64,000 bases of DNA from JAYKJB01 sp035284745 [NCBI: Candidatus Sericytochromatia bacterium]. Lineage in GTDB: Bacteria; Cyanobacteriota; Sericytochromatia; S15B-MN24. The stretch covers positions 62,001 through 126,000 of the forward strand of contig JAYKIL010000031.1 of assembly GCA_035284745.1 (NCBI GenBank), read 5' to 3'. Each line of letters begins with the position of its first letter. The stretch's first letter is position 1. A program made the position numbers and the translations under genes. The notes beneath the pieces were generated by a model, which ran no database searches, was not told the DNA's origin, and saw only the letters and a program-made list of their open reading frames with translations. Below are positions 10,244-50,804 of this stretch, one piece after another.

Positions 10244-11332
10244 TTAGACTGCCCACGGAAAAACGCGCTCGCAAACGGCCTCTTTCTGTCTCACCCGGTA
10301 TTCGCGGTGCGCCGCCTGGCCTTCTTGGTTCTCTTCAAAGGCAGCTTGGTCCATAATCTGAACTTCGAACGGAATAAAGGCCCGCTGAACTTCCTCACCG
10401 CGGCGTACCTTCACCAAGGCGCGCGCGGTGAATTGCATGGTCTGAAATGTGGAGGCACTGTGGGGGTTCCGGTCGTGCTCTCGCGAGGGTGGGGTATCGA
10501 TTTGATGCACGAGTCCCGTGAACTCTCGAAAGTTAATATCTCCCTGTCTGTAGGATTCATCCAGGTCATCGAATGTTTTTTGAAAGGCGTTCATGTCGAT
10601 CAACGTGTTCACAGAACGGCTGGGTTTAACGTTTGGATAGGCGAATACGTTGTTGACTCGCAAATATTTGAGCAGCAACAAAGCGTATGCTTTGTCCGGC
10701 GTCACGAAACGAACCCCCAGATGGTCGTAAATTTCTTGGGCCACGCTGTCTACCTTGTGCAAAAGCTTCAAAACGAGGCTTTCCCAAGGTTTTTCTGCCT
10801 TAAAATCGCATCGCAACAAGGGGATGATCATCTCCCCATCGGTTATCAGCATGCGGGATTGTCCAAGCTTGAGATGGGCAGAGAATCGCTCAAAGATTTG
10901 ACTCCGGGCTGCTTTGACCAATGCGGGGTCCTGCGCATACCGCGCGTGGGCCACCGCATGCCCCACCTTGAGGAACGAACAGGCCCAGTCCCGCAACGGG
11001 TGGTCAGGCGTTGACGCGAGCAAGAACAATTCAGGGAAGGTTTTCGGCAGGTCTTCGGGAAGGCCCGAGAGTGAACGCCACGGAAGGAGCACCGAGTTAA
11101 AAAAATGGGCCGTCTGCTGACTGATTTCTTCTAATTCAGACGCATCCAGGGGATCATCCGGGTCGAGACCGTAGGCCCTCAGATTGTCCAGCGCGGCCTC
11201 CCTCGTGCTCACCCGCAAACCCACCAGGTCGATGACTGAACGCCCTTCAACAATCGCTCCCAGCGTTTGCCACGGGAAACGATAGATGGGGTCGGAGATG
11301 GGGGACCCACCAATTTCGCTATGGGAAGTCAT
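10244..11332 (-). CDS. TIGR04552-like protein with divergent RelA/SpoT-type fold
   Basis: A 362-residue cytoplasmic protein resembling the uncharacterised TIGR04552 family known mostly from Myxococcota and Leptospira (assignment from memory). I see the order of RelA/SpoT synthetase motifs: [17 protein letters not shown] (residues 177-193), IYDHLGVRF (201-209), STFQTMQFT (294-302) in the place of GYxSLHTTV, and PFEVQIMD (321-328) in the place of PVEIQIRT. The Asp of the second motif is present. The Arg of the Q-I-R motif and the His of the YxSLH motif are replaced, so ppGpp synthesis looks doubtful. It sits 55 bases upstream of the FKBP gene and 78 bases downstream of the selenoprotein. Confidence 0.6.
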
Positions 11333-11410: not shown

Positions 11411-11632
11411 TTAGATGGCTTTGAGCAATTCAACGACCTCGCCATCCTCCAAGAATCTTTGTGTCTCGTGCTTGTCAAAAATTACGCGGTCGCCCACGCG
11501 AACTTGAAAAACCCCGCCACTGCCCCGAACGAGTTGGGGGTGGACGCCAAAGGCTTTTTCTATTTCGGCAGCCACACGGGCTGCCCGAGGTTCGTAGTTT
11601 CAAACCCCGCAATATGTTATTTCGATTTGCAT
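11411..11632 (-). CDS. SelW/Rdx-family selenoprotein with in-frame UGA
   Basis: A 73-residue protein of the SelT/SelW/SelH (Rdx) thioredoxin-like family, probably a thiol redox protein. Reading from ATG 11632 gives MQIEITYCGV, then TGA at 11602-11600, then NYEPRAARVAAEIEKAFGV, VRGSGGVFQVRVGD and LEDGEVVELLKAI before TAA. The CGVU active site with Sec at position 11 and the YEPRA, GSGG.F.V and DGEVV motifs are family hallmarks. The frame stays coherent and family-like on both sides of the TGA, which argues for selenocysteine and against a pseudogene. A GGGAG site lies 10 bases before the ATG. Conventional ORF finding misses it. It requires selA, selB, selC and selD elsewhere in the genome. Confidence 0.9.
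11567..11585 (-). promoter_or_regulatory. Bacterial SECIS-like hairpin downstream of the Sec codon
   Basis: The RNA of the minus strand forms a perfect 7-bp stem (GGCAGCC/GGCUGCC) closing a 5-base CGUGU loop. It starts 14 bases after the UGA codon, so the apical loop is about 21 bases downstream, inside the window that SelB recognises in known bacterial SECIS elements. It contains a GU step in the loop, as expected. The base of the stem can extend by one pair past a bulged G. Confidence 0.75.
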
Positions 11633-11859
11633 CAAACTCACACTCCCAAAAATTAAATTTTTTCTTTACAACGCCAAAATTCGGCTTGCCGTCTGTGAAT
11701 CTTCTCACAAATGTGACTTTGGGTAAATTCTTCGTCTCAGAAACTTGCCAAATTTGCGCAGGCTTGTTGTATGCTATGCGAGAACTTTTTTGCTGCAGTC
11801 GTTGCCGACGCATCGCTTCGCTTGCGGGACGTCACACATCAGAGGAAATACAGCGCACT

Positions 11860-12393
11860 ATGAATAAGCATGCGGGAGGTCGTCCGGCGAAGAGCGGTGC
11901 ACGGCGCGAACTGAAAACCTTCCGACTGGTTCCCGATGCCATCGATCGTTTGGACACCATTGCTGCCGAGCGAGGTGCGTCCACCAGCGATGTGTTGAAC
12001 GACTTGCTGTTAGGAGTGCGTCGGGCGGACCACGGCGACCATTCACGGGGCCCTCGTTTCAGCGTGTTGCCGGGGCAGCACGACGTGGAAAGCAGCAAAG
12101 TTGCCTCCCTTGAACGTTTCAAAGTCCTCACCGGTCGGGGGCGTCCGGGGCAAACGGAGGATTCTGCGCGTTTGGCGCACGAACTGGCTCGCCTGCGCGA
12201 TGCGTTGGGGGGTGTTTTGGGTGAGGTGGAGCATTTGATGGCCGAGCAAATTGCTGGAGATGCTCAGCCGATACGCGCTGGGAGCAAAGCGGCAGACCCT
12301 TACGCCCACGGATTTCGCGACGGGATGTTAGAGGCCTTAGAAACGGCATACGCCCTGCTGCAGGCTGAACTTTTGATAACGGAAGGATTCTAA
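11860..12393 (+). CDS. Ribbon-helix-helix DNA-binding protein
   Basis: A 177-residue protein. The ATG at 11860 was chosen because AGAGGAAA lies 11 bases upstream and the preceding 133 codons of open frame are not protein-like and cover the selenoprotein and its upstream region. Residues about 13-50 (RRELKTFRLVPDAIDRLDTI and the following helix) match a ribbon-helix-helix/Arc-type domain. The C-terminal half is helical and may oligomerise. The gene converges on parB with 20 bases between stops. A role in segregation or local transcription control is an inference. Confidence 0.7.
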   Translation: MNKHAGGRPAKSGARRELKTFRLVPDAIDRLDTIAAERGASTSDVLNDLLLGVRRADHGDHSRGPRFSVLPGQHDVESSKVASLERFKVLTGRGRPGQTEDSARLAHELARLRDALGGVLGEVEHLMAEQIAGDAQPIRAGSKAADPYAHGFRDGMLEALETAYALLQAELLITEGF

Positions 12394-31714: not shown

Positions 31715-32689
31715 GTGAGCTCGGGGCACGAGGAACTGCCCGACTGCTCTGGCGACGAAGAGGCCTGGCTTGTCGAAGCGGGTGACGAAGGGTTGCGTCT
31801 GGATGCCTATCTGTGTGCTCATCTCGAGGATGTGTCTCGCACGCGGGCGCAACGTTGGATAGCAGATGGGCTCGCGCGCGTGGACGGCGCTAGCAGCAAG
31901 TCTTCGGCGCGCCTTAAAACAGGCCAGGTCGTGACTTTGTTGGTGAGTCCGGTGCTTCAGGAGGTGAAACTGTCACCGGAGGCCTTGCCGTTGGAGATCG
32001 TGTTCGAAGACTCCGACATGATTGTTTTGAACAAGGCGGTGGGGATGGTTGTTCACCCTTCGCCAGGACATGCCACCGGAACCATGGTGCACGCGTTGTT
32101 ACACCATTGTCGAGGACAGTTGTCTGGGATTGGTGGGGTGGCCCGCCCCGGTATTGTTCACCGCTTGGATAAAGACACGTCGGGACTCATTATGGCGGCC
32201 AAGACTGATTTGGCACACGCTTCGCTTTCGGATCAAATTGCGAAAAAAGAGGCTTCCCGTCTGTACTGGGCCGTTGTTGGCGGCCATCTACCCACGTCGG
32301 TGGGACGGGTGGATGCCCCGCTTGCGCGTCACGTCGTTCATCGGCAAAGGATGGCTGTGGTGGCGGGGGGCAGGCCGGCGGCCACGCGCTGGGAAGTGTT
32401 GGAGTCCTTTAGGGGCTACGAATGGGTTGCGTGTTTGCTGGAAACGGGCCGGACCCATCAGATTCGAGTCCATATGAACTACCTGGGACACCCGATTGTG
32501 GGTGATCCCGTCTACGGGGGGGACCGTTCTTTGCCCGTAAAGCTCTCAGGCCAAGCACTGCACGCGCGCGGGTTGCGGGTAAGGCATCCCCGGACCGCTG
32601 AGATATTGGAGTTTGAGGCATCACCTCCCGAACCTTTTTCCAAACTATTGAACTACTTGAGGTTACATCGCGCAGAAAAAGGTCGGTGA
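31715..32689 (+). CDS. rluD: RluD-type rRNA pseudouridine synthase
   Basis: A 324-residue enzyme converting uridines of 23S rRNA to pseudouridine. It has an N-terminal S4 RNA-binding domain (LDAYLCAHLEDVSRTRAQRWI, residues about 26-75) and a catalytic domain with the active-site Asp in GIVHRLDKDTSG. The motifs LLETGRTHQIRVH and IVGDPVYGG complete the family pattern. The start is GTG with a weak ribosome site. Substrate position is inferred. Confidence 0.93.
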   Translation: MSSGHEELPDCSGDEEAWLVEAGDEGLRLDAYLCAHLEDVSRTRAQRWIADGLARVDGASSKSSARLKTGQVVTLLVSPVLQEVKLSPEALPLEIVFEDSDMIVLNKAVGMVVHPSPGHATGTMVHALLHHCRGQLSGIGGVARPGIVHRLDKDTSGLIMAAKTDLAHASLSDQIAKKEASRLYWAVVGGHLPTSVGRVDAPLARHVVHRQRMAVVAGGRPAATRWEVLESFRGYEWVACLLETGRTHQIRVHMNYLGHPIVGDPVYGGDRSLPVKLSGQALHARGLRVRHPRTAEILEFEASPPEPFSKLLNYLRLHRAEKGR

Positions 32690-32702
32690 GTTTTTTAGTT
32701 GG

Positions 32703-32927
32703 TCAATGGCAGCTACATCCGCCCCCACAGCCGCCTCCCCGTGAGGTAGGGTGCGGCGCTTGCGGTGCAGCGATGCCCTTGCCTGCCACGTTGGCCGCGA
32801 AAGTGCTCATCAACCGCTGCAGCGTGTGGCTCTGGCACGTAGGACACACGGCTTGCTCTTTGGCGCTGGCAAGAAACACCTCGAAGGCATTTTTGCACGA
32901 CTCGCACCGGTACTCGTAGATAGGCAC
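32703..32927 (-). CDS. FmdB-family zinc-ribbon protein
   Basis: A 74-residue protein. The GTG at 32927 follows a GGAGG site by 6 bases and begins with the family motif PIYEYRCESC. It has two CxxC pairs (CESC, CPTC) forming a zinc ribbon, and ends with a Gly/Cys-rich tail GGGCGGGCSCH that may bind a further metal. Family members are small putative regulators. The start is divergent from the gcvPB start. Confidence 0.9.
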   Translation of the reverse strand: MPIYEYRCESCKNAFEVFLASAKEQAVCPTCQSHTLQRLMSTFAANVAGKGIAAPQAPHPTSRGGGCGGGCSCH

Positions 32928-33172
32928 TGCATACCTCCAAGCGTTGACTTCTTTGTCTGACGAGGGAACGATCCGATCATACCACGGGTCCCGACCCATC
33001 GTTCACGGCTCCCTTGATGCGATGCCCGTGGACACCGCGTCGCCCCCCCTGATACGATACGGCGGCGGGTGTGAGTGACATGGAAGAGTGTTAAGCGCGA
33101 CGGGGAGAGGTGGCTGTTGGCAAGAACAGCCTGATCCGTACCGTTCGAGGCGTCATTGTCGGAGTGTGTCCT

Positions 33173-42458: not shown

Positions 42459-42779
42459 GTGATGAAGTTTGTTGCGTTGTATCGGCAACCGGAGGACAAA
42501 ACCGCGTTTGACACGCATTTCAATTCGGTGCACGTGCCCTTGTGTGAGGCGGTGCCAAATCTGTTGAAAATGGAAGTCACGCGATTCACCGGAACCCCTC
42601 GTGGGGAGAGCGACATCTATCTGATGGCGCAGATGTATTTCGCGGATCAAAAGTCGATGATGGAAGGCCTGATGTCTGAGGCGGGTAAGGCGACAGCCAA
42701 GGATGCCCGGGCCTTTGCGGGCGAAATTTTTAGCGGCTATTTTGGCGAAGTACAGGCGCCAGCCTCCGTGGAGGCTTAA
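42459..42779 (+). CDS. EthD-domain protein
   Basis: A 106-residue alpha/beta-barrel-dimer protein of the EthD family (MKFVALYRQPED, HVPLCEAVPNLLKMEVTRFTG, YFADQKSMMEG). The GTG at 42459, or ATG three bases later, follows GAGGAGG. EthD members support oxidation of unusual substrates in several systems, and some are decarboxylases or dehydratases. It is the first gene of the catabolic cluster and lies 4 bases before a crotonase. Confidence 0.85.
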   Translation: MMKFVALYRQPEDKTAFDTHFNSVHVPLCEAVPNLLKMEVTRFTGTPRGESDIYLMAQMYFADQKSMMEGLMSEAGKATAKDARAFAGEIFSGYFGEVQAPASVEA

Positions 42780-42783
42780 ATGG

Positions 42784-43599
42784 ATGATGCACGCTGAAAA
42801 GTGGCCTCACGCCTCGTCGCACGCTGAAAACAACCAATACATTCGTGTGTGGCGCGAGGGACGCGTGGGTGTCGTTCAGATCAGCCGTCCTGAGGCCCTC
42901 AACGCCCTCAGCATCCCTTTAATGCGGGAGCTGTTGGAGGCATTGTGGGCTTTTGATGCGGACAATGATGTGGGCGCAGTGGTTTTGACCGGGGACGCGC
43001 GCGCCTTTGCTGCGGGCGCGGACATCAAAGAAATGGAGGGCCAAGGGGCCATTGAAATGTTGCTCGAATCAGGTTTGGGCCTGTGGGATGCCGTTGGTAC
43101 GGTTCGCAAGCCGATCGTGGCGGCGGTGAGCGGCCATTGTCTGGGTGGGGGCTGTGAACTCGCAATGGCCTGCGACATGATCGTAGCCTCTGAGTCAGCG
43201 CGTTTTGGCCAACCTGAAATTAATCTTGGGGTGATACCCGGAGCCGGTGGCACCCAGAGACTCGCAAGGGCATTGGGGACGCGTCGGGCGATGGAGATGA
43301 TTCTCACCGGTGCGACGTTCGGGGCCTCCGAGGCCTTGGCCTCAGGTTTGGTTAATCGGGTGGTTCCCGTGGAATTATTTTTGGAGGAGGCGGTTGCTTT
43401 GGCCGCAACCGTGGCCGCCAAGCCGCCAGTGGCGGTTCGGTTGGCCAAACAGTTGATACACGCCACGGACGAGGTGAGTCTCGGGGAAGGACTACAGCGG
43501 GAACGACACGCCTTTTTCCTTCTTTTTGCCAGTGAAGATCAAAAGGAAGGGATGCGTGCTTTCGTCGAAAAACGTGCGCCACACTGGAGGGGACGTTAG
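42784..43599 (+). CDS. Enoyl-CoA hydratase (PaaF-like)
   Basis: A 271-residue crotonase that hydrates 2-enoyl-CoA. Both catalytic Glu are present (GGGCELAMACD and QPEINLGVIPGAGG). The oxyanion-hole region AFAAGADIKEM is intact. The start ATG at 42784 lies 4 bases after the EthD stop. Its fit to PaaF of phenylacetate degradation is plausible, but ordinary beta-oxidation cannot be excluded. Confidence 0.92.
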   Translation: MMHAEKWPHASSHAENNQYIRVWREGRVGVVQISRPEALNALSIPLMRELLEALWAFDADNDVGAVVLTGDARAFAAGADIKEMEGQGAIEMLLESGLGLWDAVGTVRKPIVAAVSGHCLGGGCELAMACDMIVASESARFGQPEINLGVIPGAGGTQRLARALGTRRAMEMILTGATFGASEALASGLVNRVVPVELFLEEAVALAATVAAKPPVAVRLAKQLIHATDEVSLGEGLQRERHAFFLLFASEDQKEGMRAFVEKRAPHWRGR

Positions 43600-43601
43600 A
43601 A

Positions 43602-44402
43602 ATGACGGCTGCGACATATTCGACCATTCTGTACCACGTCAAGGAGGGGATCGCCTCTCTGGTGTTCAACCGACAAGAGGTGCTCAATGCTTTCAATGAC
43701 CGAATGTCCGAAGAGGTCTATGTTGCGCTGAGGCACGCGGCCCGGGACGAAAATACAAGATGCGTCATCATTACGGGGGCTGGGAAAGCTTTTTGCGCTG
43801 GCCAGGACCTCGGAAGTCGCAATGTGGCTGATTTTGATGGCGAATTGCATCTTGGGGAGTCTGTGCGCGAACGTTACAACCCGATTATCCAGCTGATCAG
43901 AACCATGGATAAGCCCGTTGTTGCCGCTTTGAACGGGGTCGCCGCAGGTGCCGGGTGTTCTATTGCGTTGGCTTGTGATCTCCGTTTGGCGTCCACCAAG
44001 GCAAATTTGATTCAAGCTTTCGTCAGAATTGGCGCCGCGCCTGATTCAGGGTCATCTTTTTTCCTCCCGCGTCTCGTGGGATTGGGGCGGGCGACAGAGC
44101 TTTTGTTTCTTGGCGATAAGATCAACGCGGTGGAAGCAGAGCGTTGGGGTTTGGTGAACCGCGTGGCTGAGCCGGAGGCCTTTGATGCCTTGGTTCAAGA
44201 TTACGCCCACCGTTTATCCCAGGCACCGACGCGTGCGATTGCCCTCGCAAAACGTGCTTTGAACCAAGCGATGGATACCGATCTGACGACGACGCTCGAG
44301 CATGAGGCTTGGATGCAGGAACTTGCGGGAAGAAGTTCTGATTACGCCGAGGGGGTGCGTGCCTTTACGGAGAAGCGGCCGCCGGTTTACACTGGAAAGT
44401 AG
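43602..44402 (+). CDS. PaaG-like 2-(1,2-epoxy)phenylacetyl-CoA isomerase / enoyl-CoA isomerase
   Basis: A 266-residue crotonase-fold isomerase starting 2 bases after the previous gene. It lacks the first hydratase Glu (AAGAGCSIALACD) and has the PaaG-type Asp in IGAAPDSGSSFFLPR. The close similarity to E. coli PaaG continues through the tail LAGRSSDYAEGVRAFTEKRPP. PaaG converts epoxyphenylacetyl-CoA to its oxepin. Here it lies directly upstream of a diiron protein of the PaaA/PaaC family. Confidence 0.88.
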   Translation: MTAATYSTILYHVKEGIASLVFNRQEVLNAFNDRMSEEVYVALRHAARDENTRCVIITGAGKAFCAGQDLGSRNVADFDGELHLGESVRERYNPIIQLIRTMDKPVVAALNGVAAGAGCSIALACDLRLASTKANLIQAFVRIGAAPDSGSSFFLPRLVGLGRATELLFLGDKINAVEAERWGLVNRVAEPEAFDALVQDYAHRLSQAPTRAIALAKRALNQAMDTDLTTTLEHEAWMQELAGRSSDYAEGVRAFTEKRPPVYTGK

Positions 44403-44500
44403 TCGGTGAGGTTGCAGAGTTTGGCTAAGCAACCTGCTGTCTTCGGTGGGAAGTGGAACTTGAGGCAACGAGGCCTCGTTCGAGGGAGGAGTCACATCCA

Positions 44501-45319
44501 ATGTTGAAGACCGAAGAAGTGGAAGCGAGAATGCTTGCCAAGATAGAGGCAGGCCAAAAAATTGAGTCAGTCGACGAGATGACTGACGACTACAAGACTC
44601 ATTTGACCAACCTGATGATGATGCAGGCCGATTCTGAGTTGGCCGGTTGCTACGGTTACCTGCCTTGGATACAAAAGGCCCCGACGATTGAAGAGAAGTT
44701 TGCCGTTTCGAACATTGTGCGGGATGAGATGCGTCATGCCTTGGCGATGTACAACTTGCTTGAACGGCTCGGTGTAAATATCGAGTCGCATATTGCAAAG
44801 CACGATTACACCAGCAGGCCGACGGATGCTGTCAGCAATATTGGGGATGCACGGTTGGGGGATGACAAACGGGTCAACATTTTTTACTACCCCATCGATA
44901 CTTGGTATGACTTCATTATGTTCAACTTTTGTATGGATCGAGGCGCCGGGCATCAATTGGAAGATGTGCGGCAATGTAGTTATGGCCCTTGGGCGCGAGA
45001 GATTGAAAAAATCTTCAAAGAAGAGATGGTCCATGTGGCCCACGGGAATTACTGGGTGAAGAAACTGGCCGAGAACCCGGAAACCAAGCCCGAACTTCAG
45101 GCCACGCTCGACAAATGGTACATCCGAACGATGAATATTTTTGGTCGACCGGGTTCCCGTAGGAACGCACTGTATCGCAAATACCGTTTGAAATTGAGAG
45201 ACAACGATGCCGTTCGCCAGGCTTTTCACGAGGAAGTGTCTGGTTTGTGCTCGCAATGGGGCTTGAGCCTTCCTCGATGGGATGCGCCTTGGGCTGATGC
45301 GAAGCCTAAAAAAGCGTGA
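44501..45319 (+). CDS. PaaA/PaaC-family diiron protein, ring-epoxidase-like
   Basis: A 272-residue ferritin-like protein of the phenylacetyl-CoA epoxidase PaaA/PaaC family (Pfam Phenol_MetA_deg-type name uncertain). Two ExxH motifs fit a dinuclear iron site: DEMRH (Glu76/His79) and EEMVH (Glu175/His178), with a candidate Glu46 before the first. The ATG at 44501 was chosen as the first methionine after a GAGGAG region. No PaaB, PaaC partner, PaaD or PaaE is adjacent. It overlaps the start of the next gene by 4 bases. Confidence 0.85.
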   Translation: MLKTEEVEARMLAKIEAGQKIESVDEMTDDYKTHLTNLMMMQADSELAGCYGYLPWIQKAPTIEEKFAVSNIVRDEMRHALAMYNLLERLGVNIESHIAKHDYTSRPTDAVSNIGDARLGDDKRVNIFYYPIDTWYDFIMFNFCMDRGAGHQLEDVRQCSYGPWAREIEKIFKEEMVHVAHGNYWVKKLAENPETKPELQATLDKWYIRTMNIFGRPGSRRNALYRKYRLKLRDNDAVRQAFHEEVSGLCSQWGLSLPRWDAPWADAKPKKA

Positions 45320-46986
45320 ACAGTATTCCTGCGGACTCCATCTTTACCGGGCATGATCGCGTTGTGAGTCAGCCGTCCTTGGGCGTTCTGGGGGCCGGTA
45401 CCATGGGGACGGGGATTGCCCAACTCCTTTTGGCATCAGGCTTGCAGGTGACGGTCTATGACCCGCACGGAGACGCACTGTCGCGAGCGACACGGGCCAT
45501 CGAACAGGGCCTTGGGCGGTTAATGCAAAAAGGAACATTGACCGCCGAATTCTGTTCATCTGCTTTAAAGAACCTCACGTGCACGTCGACTTTGTCGAAT
45601 ATTTCAAAGCTGGACGGGGTGATTGAGGCGGCACCGGAGGACTTTGCCCTCAAGGTTCAACTGTTGTCGCAGGTTGCGGATGTGCTTTCGCCAGAGGCCT
45701 TCTTGGCAACGAACACCAGTTCACTCTCTGTGTCGGCCTTGGCTGCGGCCTTGCCCGACCCCTCTCGACTGTTGGGTATTCATTTTTTTAATCCGGTCCA
45801 TGCGATGTCGTTGGTTGAATTGGTGAGGGGTGACGCCACCGCGGATGATGTGTTTGAACGCGCGTGGGACTTGGTGGAACAAATTGGCAAGGCACCCATC
45901 GCATGTCGGGATACCCCGGGATTTATCGTGAACAGAGTGGCCCGGGGCTACTATGGTGAGGCACTGCGCTTGGTTGGAGACCATGGGGCGGAACCGGAAG
46001 ATGTTGACCGGGCCTTGGTTCTCGGTCTGGGGTTCCCGCTGGGCCCTTGTGCATTGATGGATCTGATTGGCATGGATGTGAACCTTTCTGTGTCGAGGCA
46101 AGTGTGGCAAGCCTTTTTTTACGAAGCGCGTTTCGCCCCTCATCCGTTGCAACAGCGTTTAGTGGACACCGGGCGCCTGGGGCGAAAAACCGGGCACGGT
46201 TTTTATCGTTATCCCCGGGCTGAGATCACGACACCTTCGGAGCCGTCGCTGCCAGTTCGTCCGTTGCGCGTGATGTTTGCAGGTCAGAGCGCGGCTTTAG
46301 ATGCGTGGGCCCGCCCTCTGGTGGCGGCGGGGCACCACGTGGAATTGTTTGGTGATCACTTGGAATCAATCGCACCCGGTGACTGGGATGGCGCATTTGA
46401 AATTGGGGAGGCACTCCCGGAGGTACGGGCGGCGAGAAGGGCTCGTTTGGCCTCGTGTCTGCCTGGGAATGCTTGGATCGCCAGTGATGACCTGTCTGTC
46501 ACGTCCACTGAAATTGAGGTGGCGACAGGGCGTGTTGCCTGGCGATTTTGTGCTTGGCCAGGGGGCCAATCTGACGTGCGTAAGGGAATCGAGGTGGCGT
46601 TCGCTCCGCATTGTCCCGAAATGCGTCAAGAACAAGTGAGGGCGCTCTGGCAGTCTACGGGTCGGGAAATGTTGTGCGGGCCAGATTTGCCGGGCCTCAT
46701 TGGGCCGAGAACTTTGGTGATGCTCATCAACGAGGCTGCTTTTGCGGTTGAGTCTGGAGTGGCAACTCCTGAGGCGATCGACCGGGCGATGTGTTTAGGA
46801 ACTGGTTACCCCTGCGGTCCCTTGGAGTGGGCTGATCGGGTGGGTCCGGATCGTGTTGTCGCACTGTTACGTACGCTGAGGGAACTGTTTGGCGAACGTT
46901 ATCGACCTGCGCCTTGGTTGGTGCGGCGCGCCACTGCTGGCTGGCCTTTGAGCGACTCTCCGGCCAGTTCTCAGCGCTGGCGCTGA
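45316..46986 (+). CDS. 3-hydroxyacyl-CoA dehydrogenase, PaaH-like with extra C-terminal domain
   Basis: A 556-residue NAD-dependent dehydrogenase. The GTG start overlaps the stop of the diiron gene (GTGA). The Rossmann motif LGVLGAGTMGTGIAQ, catalytic His in GIHFFNPVHAM and Asn in NTSSLS are intact. After the first dehydrogenase unit a second 3HCDH C-domain follows (PRTLVMLINEAAFAVESGVATPEAIDRAM). This two-domain architecture is PaaH-like. It closes the operon and ends 2 bases before the convergent antiporter stop. Confidence 0.92.
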   Translation: MNSIPADSIFTGHDRVVSQPSLGVLGAGTMGTGIAQLLLASGLQVTVYDPHGDALSRATRAIEQGLGRLMQKGTLTAEFCSSALKNLTCTSTLSNISKLDGVIEAAPEDFALKVQLLSQVADVLSPEAFLATNTSSLSVSALAAALPDPSRLLGIHFFNPVHAMSLVELVRGDATADDVFERAWDLVEQIGKAPIACRDTPGFIVNRVARGYYGEALRLVGDHGAEPEDVDRALVLGLGFPLGPCALMDLIGMDVNLSVSRQVWQAFFYEARFAPHPLQQRLVDTGRLGRKTGHGFYRYPRAEITTPSEPSLPVRPLRVMFAGQSAALDAWARPLVAAGHHVELFGDHLESIAPGDWDGAFEIGEALPEVRAARRARLASCLPGNAWIASDDLSVTSTEIEVATGRVAWRFCAWPGGQSDVRKGIEVAFAPHCPEMRQEQVRALWQSTGREMLCGPDLPGLIGPRTLVMLINEAAFAVESGVATPEAIDRAMCLGTGYPCGPLEWADRVGPDRVVALLRTLRELFGERYRPAPWLVRRATAGWPLSDSPASSQRWR

Positions 46987-50244: not shown

Positions 50245-50649
50245 TTAAACGCGGGGTGCGCGAATCCCAAACTTGTCTCGGGAGTGGCGCGCCTCGTCCG
50301 CTTCACGTTCTTGATGTTGCTTGATGAGCTCCTCAACCCTGAATTGGATAAAGTGCGTCACGTCGTTCACCTTCAGGGCGTCCGCGGTTTCGTCTAATTT
50401 TTCCTGGCGGATATAGAGCGACCGGAAATATTGCTCGACCAATGCCAAGCGCACGGTCCACGGGTCGTGCCCCTCCTTGCGCATTTTTTCGCGATGAACG
50501 GCATAGGTGCCCCGACTTGATGTCCAGAGGTTTTCCATCAGGTCCATCAAATCTTGAGGACTGACCTCTTCGAGGGGGTCTCCGTATTTGCCTATATATT
50601 GCTCCCGAACTTCAGGAACTTGGAATTTTGCTAGTTCTCGCCGGTTCAC
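50245..50649 (-). CDS. Conserved-looking hypothetical protein
   Basis: A 134-residue soluble, charged and helical protein (EQYIGKYGDPLEEVSPQDLMDLM, then VTHFIQFRVEELIKQHQ). No catalytic or membrane motif is visible. The gene has its own downstream terminator. I do not recognise the family. Confidence 0.7.
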   Translation of the reverse strand: MNRRELAKFQVPEVREQYIGKYGDPLEEVSPQDLMDLMENLWTSSRGTYAVHREKMRKEGHDPWTVRLALVEQYFRSLYIRQEKLDETADALKVNDVTHFIQFRVEELIKQHQEREADEARHSRDKFGIRAPRV

Positions 50650-50804
50650 GGGTCAACCTCCAACTGTGGCCCTTTTAAGAACCTCCCAGAGGGCACCGGA
50701 CCACACGCTACGATCCTACCACCGATTGCTGTGAACGACAAACTCCGCAGTTGTGACACCGCGGGGTCTCGACGGCCGGAATTTTGGGGGCCGGGGCAGT
50801 CGTT

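What the first reader, a model, noticed from the sequence alone, without database searches (positions are those of the whole stretch)
11411..11632. Unannotated SelW-like selenoprotein with its own SECIS-like hairpin
The minus-strand frame with in-frame TGA at 11602-11600 yields a complete 73-residue Rdx-family protein with CGVU at residues 8-11, and a perfect 7-bp stem with a 5-base loop begins 14 bases after the UGA. Family motifs lie on both sides of the codon. Standard ORF calling breaks the gene. This implies a functional selenocysteine system in the organism and a redox protein next to a RelA/SpoT-fold gene.
Basis: partly seen in the sequence, partly recalled or inferred. Interest (0 to 1): 0.85.

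Follow-up and report, generated by a model that had tools for sequence, protein, structure and literature searches.

The report
SelW-like selenoprotein gene with recoded stop
A small redox-protein gene that ordinary gene finders miss carries a stop codon that is almost certainly read as the rare amino acid selenocysteine, in a non-photosynthetic relative of cyanobacteria, a phylum usually described as lacking this amino acid.

Summary
The 73-residue minus-strand frame at 11411-11632 is an Rdx/SelW protein (Pfam 6e-18) with TGA at residue 11 of a CxxU motif; the part after the TGA is Rdx by itself. A 7-bp stem with a 5-base loop starts 14 nt after the UGA. Alone that hairpin is weak: 1287 of 20000 synonymous variants keep all seven pairs. 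Across 27 distinct TGA homologues it exceeds synonymous shuffles (0 of 1000 as high); 26 Cys homologues show no excess. The second loop base is G in 27 of 27. The window comes from a class of Cyanobacteriota, probably Sericytochromatia. Of 18 genomes of that class, 5 have this gene, all 5 with TGA, and all 5 are among the 7 holding selA, selB, tRNA-Sec and selD. The window's own genome is not held, so its own sel genes are unseen; its three nearest relatives in a CysS tree have all four. SelW-like proteins are a long-known selenoprotein family: a new member of a known kind. The mild surprise is the host, since published surveys report no selenocysteine in Cyanobacteria. The RelA/SpoT-like neighbour is not a conserved partner.

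The parts
11411..11632 (-). SelW-like (Rdx family) selenoprotein gene, 73 codons, ATG to TAA
   Evidence: homologues
11600..11602 (-). in-frame TGA, residue 11, inferred selenocysteine codon
   Evidence: TGA or a Cys codon at this column in all 63 sequences aligned there (37 TGA, 26 Cys)
11600..11611 (-). CGVU redox motif (CxxU), residues 8-11
   Evidence: CxxU or CxxC in homologues
11567..11585 (-). SECIS-type hairpin: 5' arm 11585-11579, loop 11578-11574 (CGUGU), 3' arm 11573-11567
11643..11647 (-). GGGAG, possible Shine-Dalgarno sequence, 10 nt before the ATG
   Evidence: sequence; not tested further
10244..11332 (-). downstream neighbour, TIGR04562/TIGR04552 family, weak RelA_SpoT resemblance; not shown to be functionally linked
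11860..12393 (+). divergent neighbour ORF (MNKHAGGRPAKSGARRELKTF...), also divergent to Rdx in sister genome G008; function not assigned
   Evidence: likeness seen by eye

Best explanation
The gene encodes a 73-residue SelW-like protein whose UGA codon 11 is decoded as selenocysteine. Shown: family membership on both sides of the UGA, TGA at the same site in relatives, a conserved hairpin right after the UGA, and the full Sec machinery in sister genomes. Inferred from the established bacterial mechanism: SelA and SelD charge tRNA-Sec(UCA), SelB binds the hairpin loop and delivers Sec-tRNA to the ribosome at the UGA. The product would be a small thioredoxin-like thiol/selenol oxidoreductase working through the CGVU pair (a Cys-Sec bridge), with a substrate that cannot be told from sequence.
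For: Rdx family match (6.1e-18; 43.2 bits for the part after the UGA alone). TGA at the same site in all 5 class genomes with the gene, out of 18 searched, and in the 30 best of the matches in 400 genomes of a second phylum. 26 further homologues have a Cys codon there. Hairpin: 146 of 189 pair cells formed in 27 distinct TGA sequences against 121.1 (sd 4.6) under synonymous shuffling, 0 of 1000 as high, mean folding energy -12.3 against -8.5, 0 of 150 as low; 26 Cys homologues 81 of 182 against 77.7, 247 of 1000 as high, energy -7.2 against -7.3. Covariation score 0.237 against 0.122 (sd 0.019), 0 of 500, and 0.034-0.114 when slid. One pair between two third codon positions appears as CG 17, AU 2, UA 2, GC 2, other 4. 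Second loop base G in 27 of 27 against 11 of 26. Loop GGUCU in 6 of 27, a sequence that E. coli fdhF also has after its UGA. selA 7, selB 7, tRNA-Sec(UCA) 7, selD 8 of 18 class genomes; the 5 gene-bearing genomes are all among the 7 with all four (Fisher p 0.0025). SelA over cut-off in 29 of 30 TGA-form against 17 of 26 Cys-form genomes (three of the 26 also hold a TGA copy). CysS tree of the window and 15 of the 18 class genomes: window with G008 (100/99), G001 (99/99), G007 (87/96), all three with the machinery.
Against: The window's own genome is not held and the window has no tRNA gene, so the machinery is inferred from relatives. The hairpin of this sequence alone has p about 0.06-0.08. 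In two of the 7 sel-bearing class genomes (G001, G007) the gene was not found, and G001 is the second-nearest relative. Six of 27 TGA homologues have only 3 or 4 of the 7 pairs in this register. Two measures of the pair counter are unremarkable: pairs with a change on both sides 331 of 500 shuffles as high, further pair types 155 of 500. The sequences are related, so shuffle counts are not true probabilities. One of 30 TGA-form genomes, G718, shows no SelA over the cut-off. No Rfam match. No protein or selenium measurement.
Confidence: 0.93

Rival explanations
1. A Cys-type SelW gene broken by a TGC/TGT to TGA mutation or sequencing error, now a pseudogene.
For: A single nucleotide separates TGA from TGC/TGT, and Cys homologues exist.
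Against: TGA at the same codon in all 5 class relatives found and in the 30 best matches of another phylum; frame intact to the family end; hairpin conserved in TGA forms and not in Cys forms.
Confidence: 0.02
2. The organism reads TGA generally as a sense codon (code 4 or 25).
For: None found beyond this gene.
Against: 15 of 51 complete ORFs that I picked by hand in the window end in TGA; the five class relatives end this very gene with TGA (L009, L010, L012, L013, L014); the tRNA with anticodon UCA in seven class genomes is tRNA-Sec.
Confidence: 0.01
3. The UGA terminates or is read through at low level without selenium: the source genome has lost Sec decoding and the gene is a relic.
For: The source genome is not held. 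Sec decoding is patchy in the class, 7 of 18.
Against: The hairpin with all 7 pairs and the family sequence after the UGA are intact; the three nearest relatives in the CysS tree keep all four genes.
Confidence: 0.04

Closest known systems
Bacterial SelW-like selenoproteins (SelT/SelW/SelH, Rdx family; Pfam PF10262, TIGR02174, NF041051)
   Same: Rdx domain over residues 2-71 of 73, CxxU at the N-terminal motif, Sec codon followed by a hairpin. Described as CxxU, 427 sequences, in ocean metagenomes (PMC2398784, passages) and in Sargasso Sea data (PMC1088965, passages).
   Different: Host phylum: Cyanobacteriota was reported without Sec (PMC1794560, passages; PMC9312934, passages). The protein itself has nothing unusual.
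Bacterial SECIS of E. coli fdhF
   Same: Stem-loop just 3' of the UGA; 6 of 27 homologues have the identical GGUCU sequence in the loop; the window has CGUGU, sharing GU in the same loop place.
   Different: GGUCU lies 3 nt further from the UGA than in fdhF, and the stem is a plain 7-bp helix.
SelW-like Cys homologues (SAV_2001, PDB 3dex; Cyanobacteriota G057 and G329)
   Same: Same domain; CxxC in place of CxxU.
   Different: Cys codon in place of TGA, no conserved hairpin in the Cys set; no SelA match in G057 and G329.

Membership tests
SelT/SelW/SelH (Rdx) family | match to family profile over its length | tested here: met
   PF10262 65.2 bits (cut-off 22.6), residues 2-71 on profile 1-73 of 74; TIGR02174 49.1 (34.2), NF041051 89.9 (88)
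SelT/SelW/SelH (Rdx) family | CxxC or CxxU motif near the N-terminus | tested here: met
   CGVU residues 8-11, aligned with CxxU or CxxC of homologues
SelT/SelW/SelH (Rdx) family | thioredoxin-like fold | not tested
   no structure was predicted; sequence relatives with solved structures include 3dex, 2fa8, 2npb
Bacterial selenoprotein | in-frame UGA aligned with Cys or Sec in homologues | tested here: met
   37 TGA and 26 Cys codons in 63 aligned sequences
Bacterial selenoprotein | SECIS hairpin immediately 3' of the UGA with G in a small apical loop | tested here: met
   apical guanosine given as a common feature in PMC1088965 (passages)
Bacterial selenoprotein | selA, selB, selC, selD in the same genome | tested here: inconclusive
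   own genome not held; all four present in G008, G001 and G007, the nearest relatives
Bacterial selenoprotein | selenium in the protein | not testable with these tools
   needs mass spectrometry or selenium-75 labelling

The most novel reading that the evidence does not exclude
Selenocysteine decoding, with SelW and mostly a Sec-containing SelD, is a working trait of part of a non-photosynthetic class of Cyanobacteriota (probably Sericytochromatia). 'Cyanobacteria lack selenocysteine' would then not hold for this class, while selA passed its cut-off nowhere else among the 386 phylum genomes searched. The trait was either present near the base of the phylum and lost elsewhere, or entered by transfer; Chloroflexota is a candidate, since in a small tree (80 columns) the window and G008 SelW group with L115 from the presumed Chloroflexota set (99/88).
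Probability: 0.75. Interest if true: 0.5.

Novelty: new member of a known kind. Interest (0 to 1): 0.42.

Why it matters
It recovers a gene that ordinary ORF listing misses and places selenocysteine use in a phylum that a comparative-genomics paper (PMC1794560) and a review (PMC9312934) list as lacking it (passages read of both). If the class branches beside the photosynthetic cyanobacteria, as Sericytochromatia are known to (recalled), it bears on when the phylum lost or gained selenocysteine. It also gives a compact set of 27 distinct SelW SECIS elements with 26 Cys controls, in which selection on RNA structure can be separated from selection on protein.

Tried and rejected
Viral contigs and phage records gave no relative; plasmid hits were distant, under 60% identity in all 20 records. 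A scan of the window for other TGA-interrupted genes gave no candidate that I judged convincing: the frames at 50245-50706(-) and 32409-33035(-) read as ordinary ORFs next to a TGA stop (judged by eye, no family search). Rfam gave no match to the hairpin. A promoter scan found none and one terminator-like site, the number expected by chance. The proposed link to the RelA/SpoT-like gene was tested and not supported. The idea that the hairpin of this one sequence proves a SECIS was rejected as too weak and replaced by the family test. The tRNA-Sec Rfam hit of G012 was rejected: ARAGORN calls it tRNA-Ser; two further hits of G013 just over the Rfam cut-off (47.4 and 47.2 bits) were not examined, as G013 has a confirmed tRNA-Sec. 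A first motif search for SelD Sec sites failed by its pattern; a second found the motif in 4 of 8 loci plus one off-frame match, so SelD counts rest. The Rdx tree has 80 columns and long branches and is not used for firm claims. The Fisher test treats related genomes as independent. Structure prediction was not run.

Full report
Observation. The minus-strand frame 11632-11411 reads MQIEITYCGVUNYEPRAARVAAEIEKAFGVHPQLVRGSGGVFQVRVGDRVIFDKHETQRFLEDGEVVELLKAI and a TAA stop, with one TGA at residue 11. Listing of ORFs of 60 aa or more finds only other frames there. The protein matches Pfam Rdx at 6.1e-18 and NCBIfam NF041051 and TIGR02174 over their cut-offs. The 62 residues after the UGA score 43.2 bits for Rdx alone and the first 35 residues 31.1 bits, both over the 22.6-bit cut-off. 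So the UGA interrupts one continuous family domain.

Host. No genome is held for the window. A genome scan with the window's 852-residue sugar-nucleotide protein found its best match, 77% identity, in MAG 'Cyanobacteria bacterium RYN_339' (G001; NCBI: Cyanobacteriota). Among 18 genomes of the class of G001, CysS is nearest in G008 (67%) and G001 (61%). Gene order around Rdx is shared with G008 (L109). A CysS tree of the window and 15 of the 18 class genomes puts the window with G008 (100/99), then G001 (99/99), then G007 (87/96). The class is probably Sericytochromatia; that name is my inference, since the tool gives no class names.

Homologues. Rdx was found in 5 of 18 class genomes, all five with TGA at the CxxU site. 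In 386 genomes of the phylum it was found in 7: those five, and two Cys forms, G057 and G329. In 400 genomes of the phylum of G004 (a MAG titled 'Anaerolineae', so presumably Chloroflexota) 153 have a match; the match list was cut. I had loci for the 30 best, all 30 with TGA, and fetched the 25 listed matches without a stop inside. Of those 25, 24 have a Cys codon at the site and one (L183) aligns only from the residue after the site, near a contig end, and was dropped. TGA-bearing matches ranked below the best 30 were not aligned. With the window, the five class relatives and G004 this gives 37 TGA and 26 Cys sequences, and no other codon at the site.

Hairpin. The stem GGCAGCC/GGCUGCC with loop CGUGU lies at nt 17-35, counting the U of UGA as 0. 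For this sequence alone, 1287 of 20000 synonymous variants drawn with window codon usage keep all 7 pairs, and 317 of 4000 are at least as stable: suggestive only. Over the 27 distinct TGA 45-mers (from 37 sequences), 146 of 189 pair cells form, against 121.1 (sd 4.6) in synonymous shuffles, 0 of 1000 as high. In the 26 Cys sequences 81 of 182 form, against 77.7, with 247 of 1000 as high. Six of the 27 have only 3 or 4 pairs in this register. The pair counter gives covariation 0.237 against 0.122, 0 of 500, and 0.034-0.114 when the partner is slid; cells paired 77.2% against 69.9%, 0 of 500. Two of its measures are not remarkable: pairs with a change on both sides (331 of 500 shuffles as high) and further pair types (155 of 500). 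The sequences are related, so these are not true probabilities; the Cys set is the fairer control. The pair of columns 21 and 33, both third codon positions, is CG 17, AU 2, UA 2, GC 2, other 4. The second loop base is G in 27 of 27 TGA forms and 11 of 26 Cys forms. Six of the 27 loops are GGUCU, a sequence also found after the UGA of E. coli fdhF, which I recalled and found matched in 5368 of 5426 E. coli genomes. There it lies 3 nt nearer the UGA.

Machinery. In the 18 class genomes, over the curated cut-offs: selA in 7, selB in 7, selD in 8, of which 7 have an in-frame TGA themselves. tRNA-Sec passes in 8, of which ARAGORN confirms 7 with anticodon UCA and calls one, in G012, tRNA-Ser. The same seven genomes hold all four, and the five with Rdx are among them (Fisher p 0.0025; relatedness not corrected). 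In 386 phylum genomes selA passes only in those seven; five others have weak matches under the cut-off. Among genomes behind the aligned sequences, SelA passes in 29 of 30 TGA-form and 17 of 26 Cys-form genomes; three of the 26 (G494, G542, G590) also hold a TGA copy. In G007 selA, selB and tRNA-Sec lie on one contig.

Alternatives. General reassignment of TGA is contradicted by 15 TGA stops among 51 complete, hand-picked window ORFs and by the five relatives that end this same gene with TGA. A point mutation or error is contradicted by the relatives. A relic in a genome that lost the machinery remains possible but unlikely.

Neighbourhood. Rdx lies 78 bp upstream of a TIGR04562-family gene. 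In G008 a frame of 370 codons (stop to stop) on the other strand lies between them. In the 6-16 kb fetched around Rdx from the other four class relatives, tblastn at 1e-5 found no direct window neighbour; one stretch (L111) is cut by a contig end beside Rdx, and one (L112) shows only hydratase-like matches about 7 kb away. In G001 the TIGR04562-type gene, split over two contig ends, has no Rdx in the 2.7 kb upstream. I find no support for a functional link.

Literature. SelW-like is a known bacterial selenoprotein family (PMC1794560, PMC2398784, PMC1088965: passages). Zhang and colleagues did not detect the Sec trait in Cyanobacteria (PMC1794560), and a 2022 review repeats that the lineage appears to lack it (PMC9312934, passages). 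A survey of more than 5200 organisms mentions Cyanobacteria only for orphan SelD in three Prochlorococcus (PMC5029168, passages). A 2022 proteome survey reports one Sec protein in 'Candidatus melainabacteria' (PWT95605.1; PMC9529120, passages), so Sec in a non-photosynthetic relative has a trace in print. No paper in the held library holds both selenocysteine and Sericytochromatia or Tanganyikabacteria; literature outside that library was not searched.

Function. That SelW proteins are small thioredoxin-like oxidoreductases is general knowledge, not tested here. The substrate here is unknown; I favour a selenol/thiol redox role through the Cys8-Sec11 pair.

Noticed in passing
L012, L009, L010, L013, L014: In all five class relatives the same gene also ends with TGA after the domain, so UGA appears to have both meanings within one short message.
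   Followed up: partly
G012 (L067, L022): A SelD with an in-frame TGA in a draft without selA or selB over the cut-offs and without a true tRNA-Sec: incomplete draft or orphan SelD.
   Followed up: no
L065 (G001): The second-nearest relative has the Cys form of SelD (GCAAK) while the seven other class SelD matches over the cut-off carry TGA.
   Followed up: no
window 11860-12393 and L109 8647-9225: A divergently oriented ORF beginning MNKHAGGRPAKSGARRELKTFRLVPDAI is conserved beside Rdx in window and G008 (by eye); possible DNA-binding protein, no family search done.
   Followed up: no
phylum of G004: Rdx matches in 153 of 400 genomes, most listed ones with TGA; three genomes (G494, G542, G590) have one TGA and one Cys copy. 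Cys forms often occur beside SelA (17 of 26 genomes), unlike the statement in PMC1794560 (passage) that SelW-like has very few or no Cys homologues in Sec-containing organisms.
   Followed up: partly
window 42703-46986: Cluster of two enoyl-CoA-hydratase-like ORFs, a possible phenylacetyl-CoA-epoxidase-like ORF and a hydroxyacyl-CoA-dehydrogenase-like ORF; names by eye, not tested.
   Followed up: no
window 32409-33035, minus: A frame with PIYEYRCESC...CPTC...CGGGCSCH then TGA resembles an FmdB-type zinc ribbon protein (by eye).
   Followed up: no
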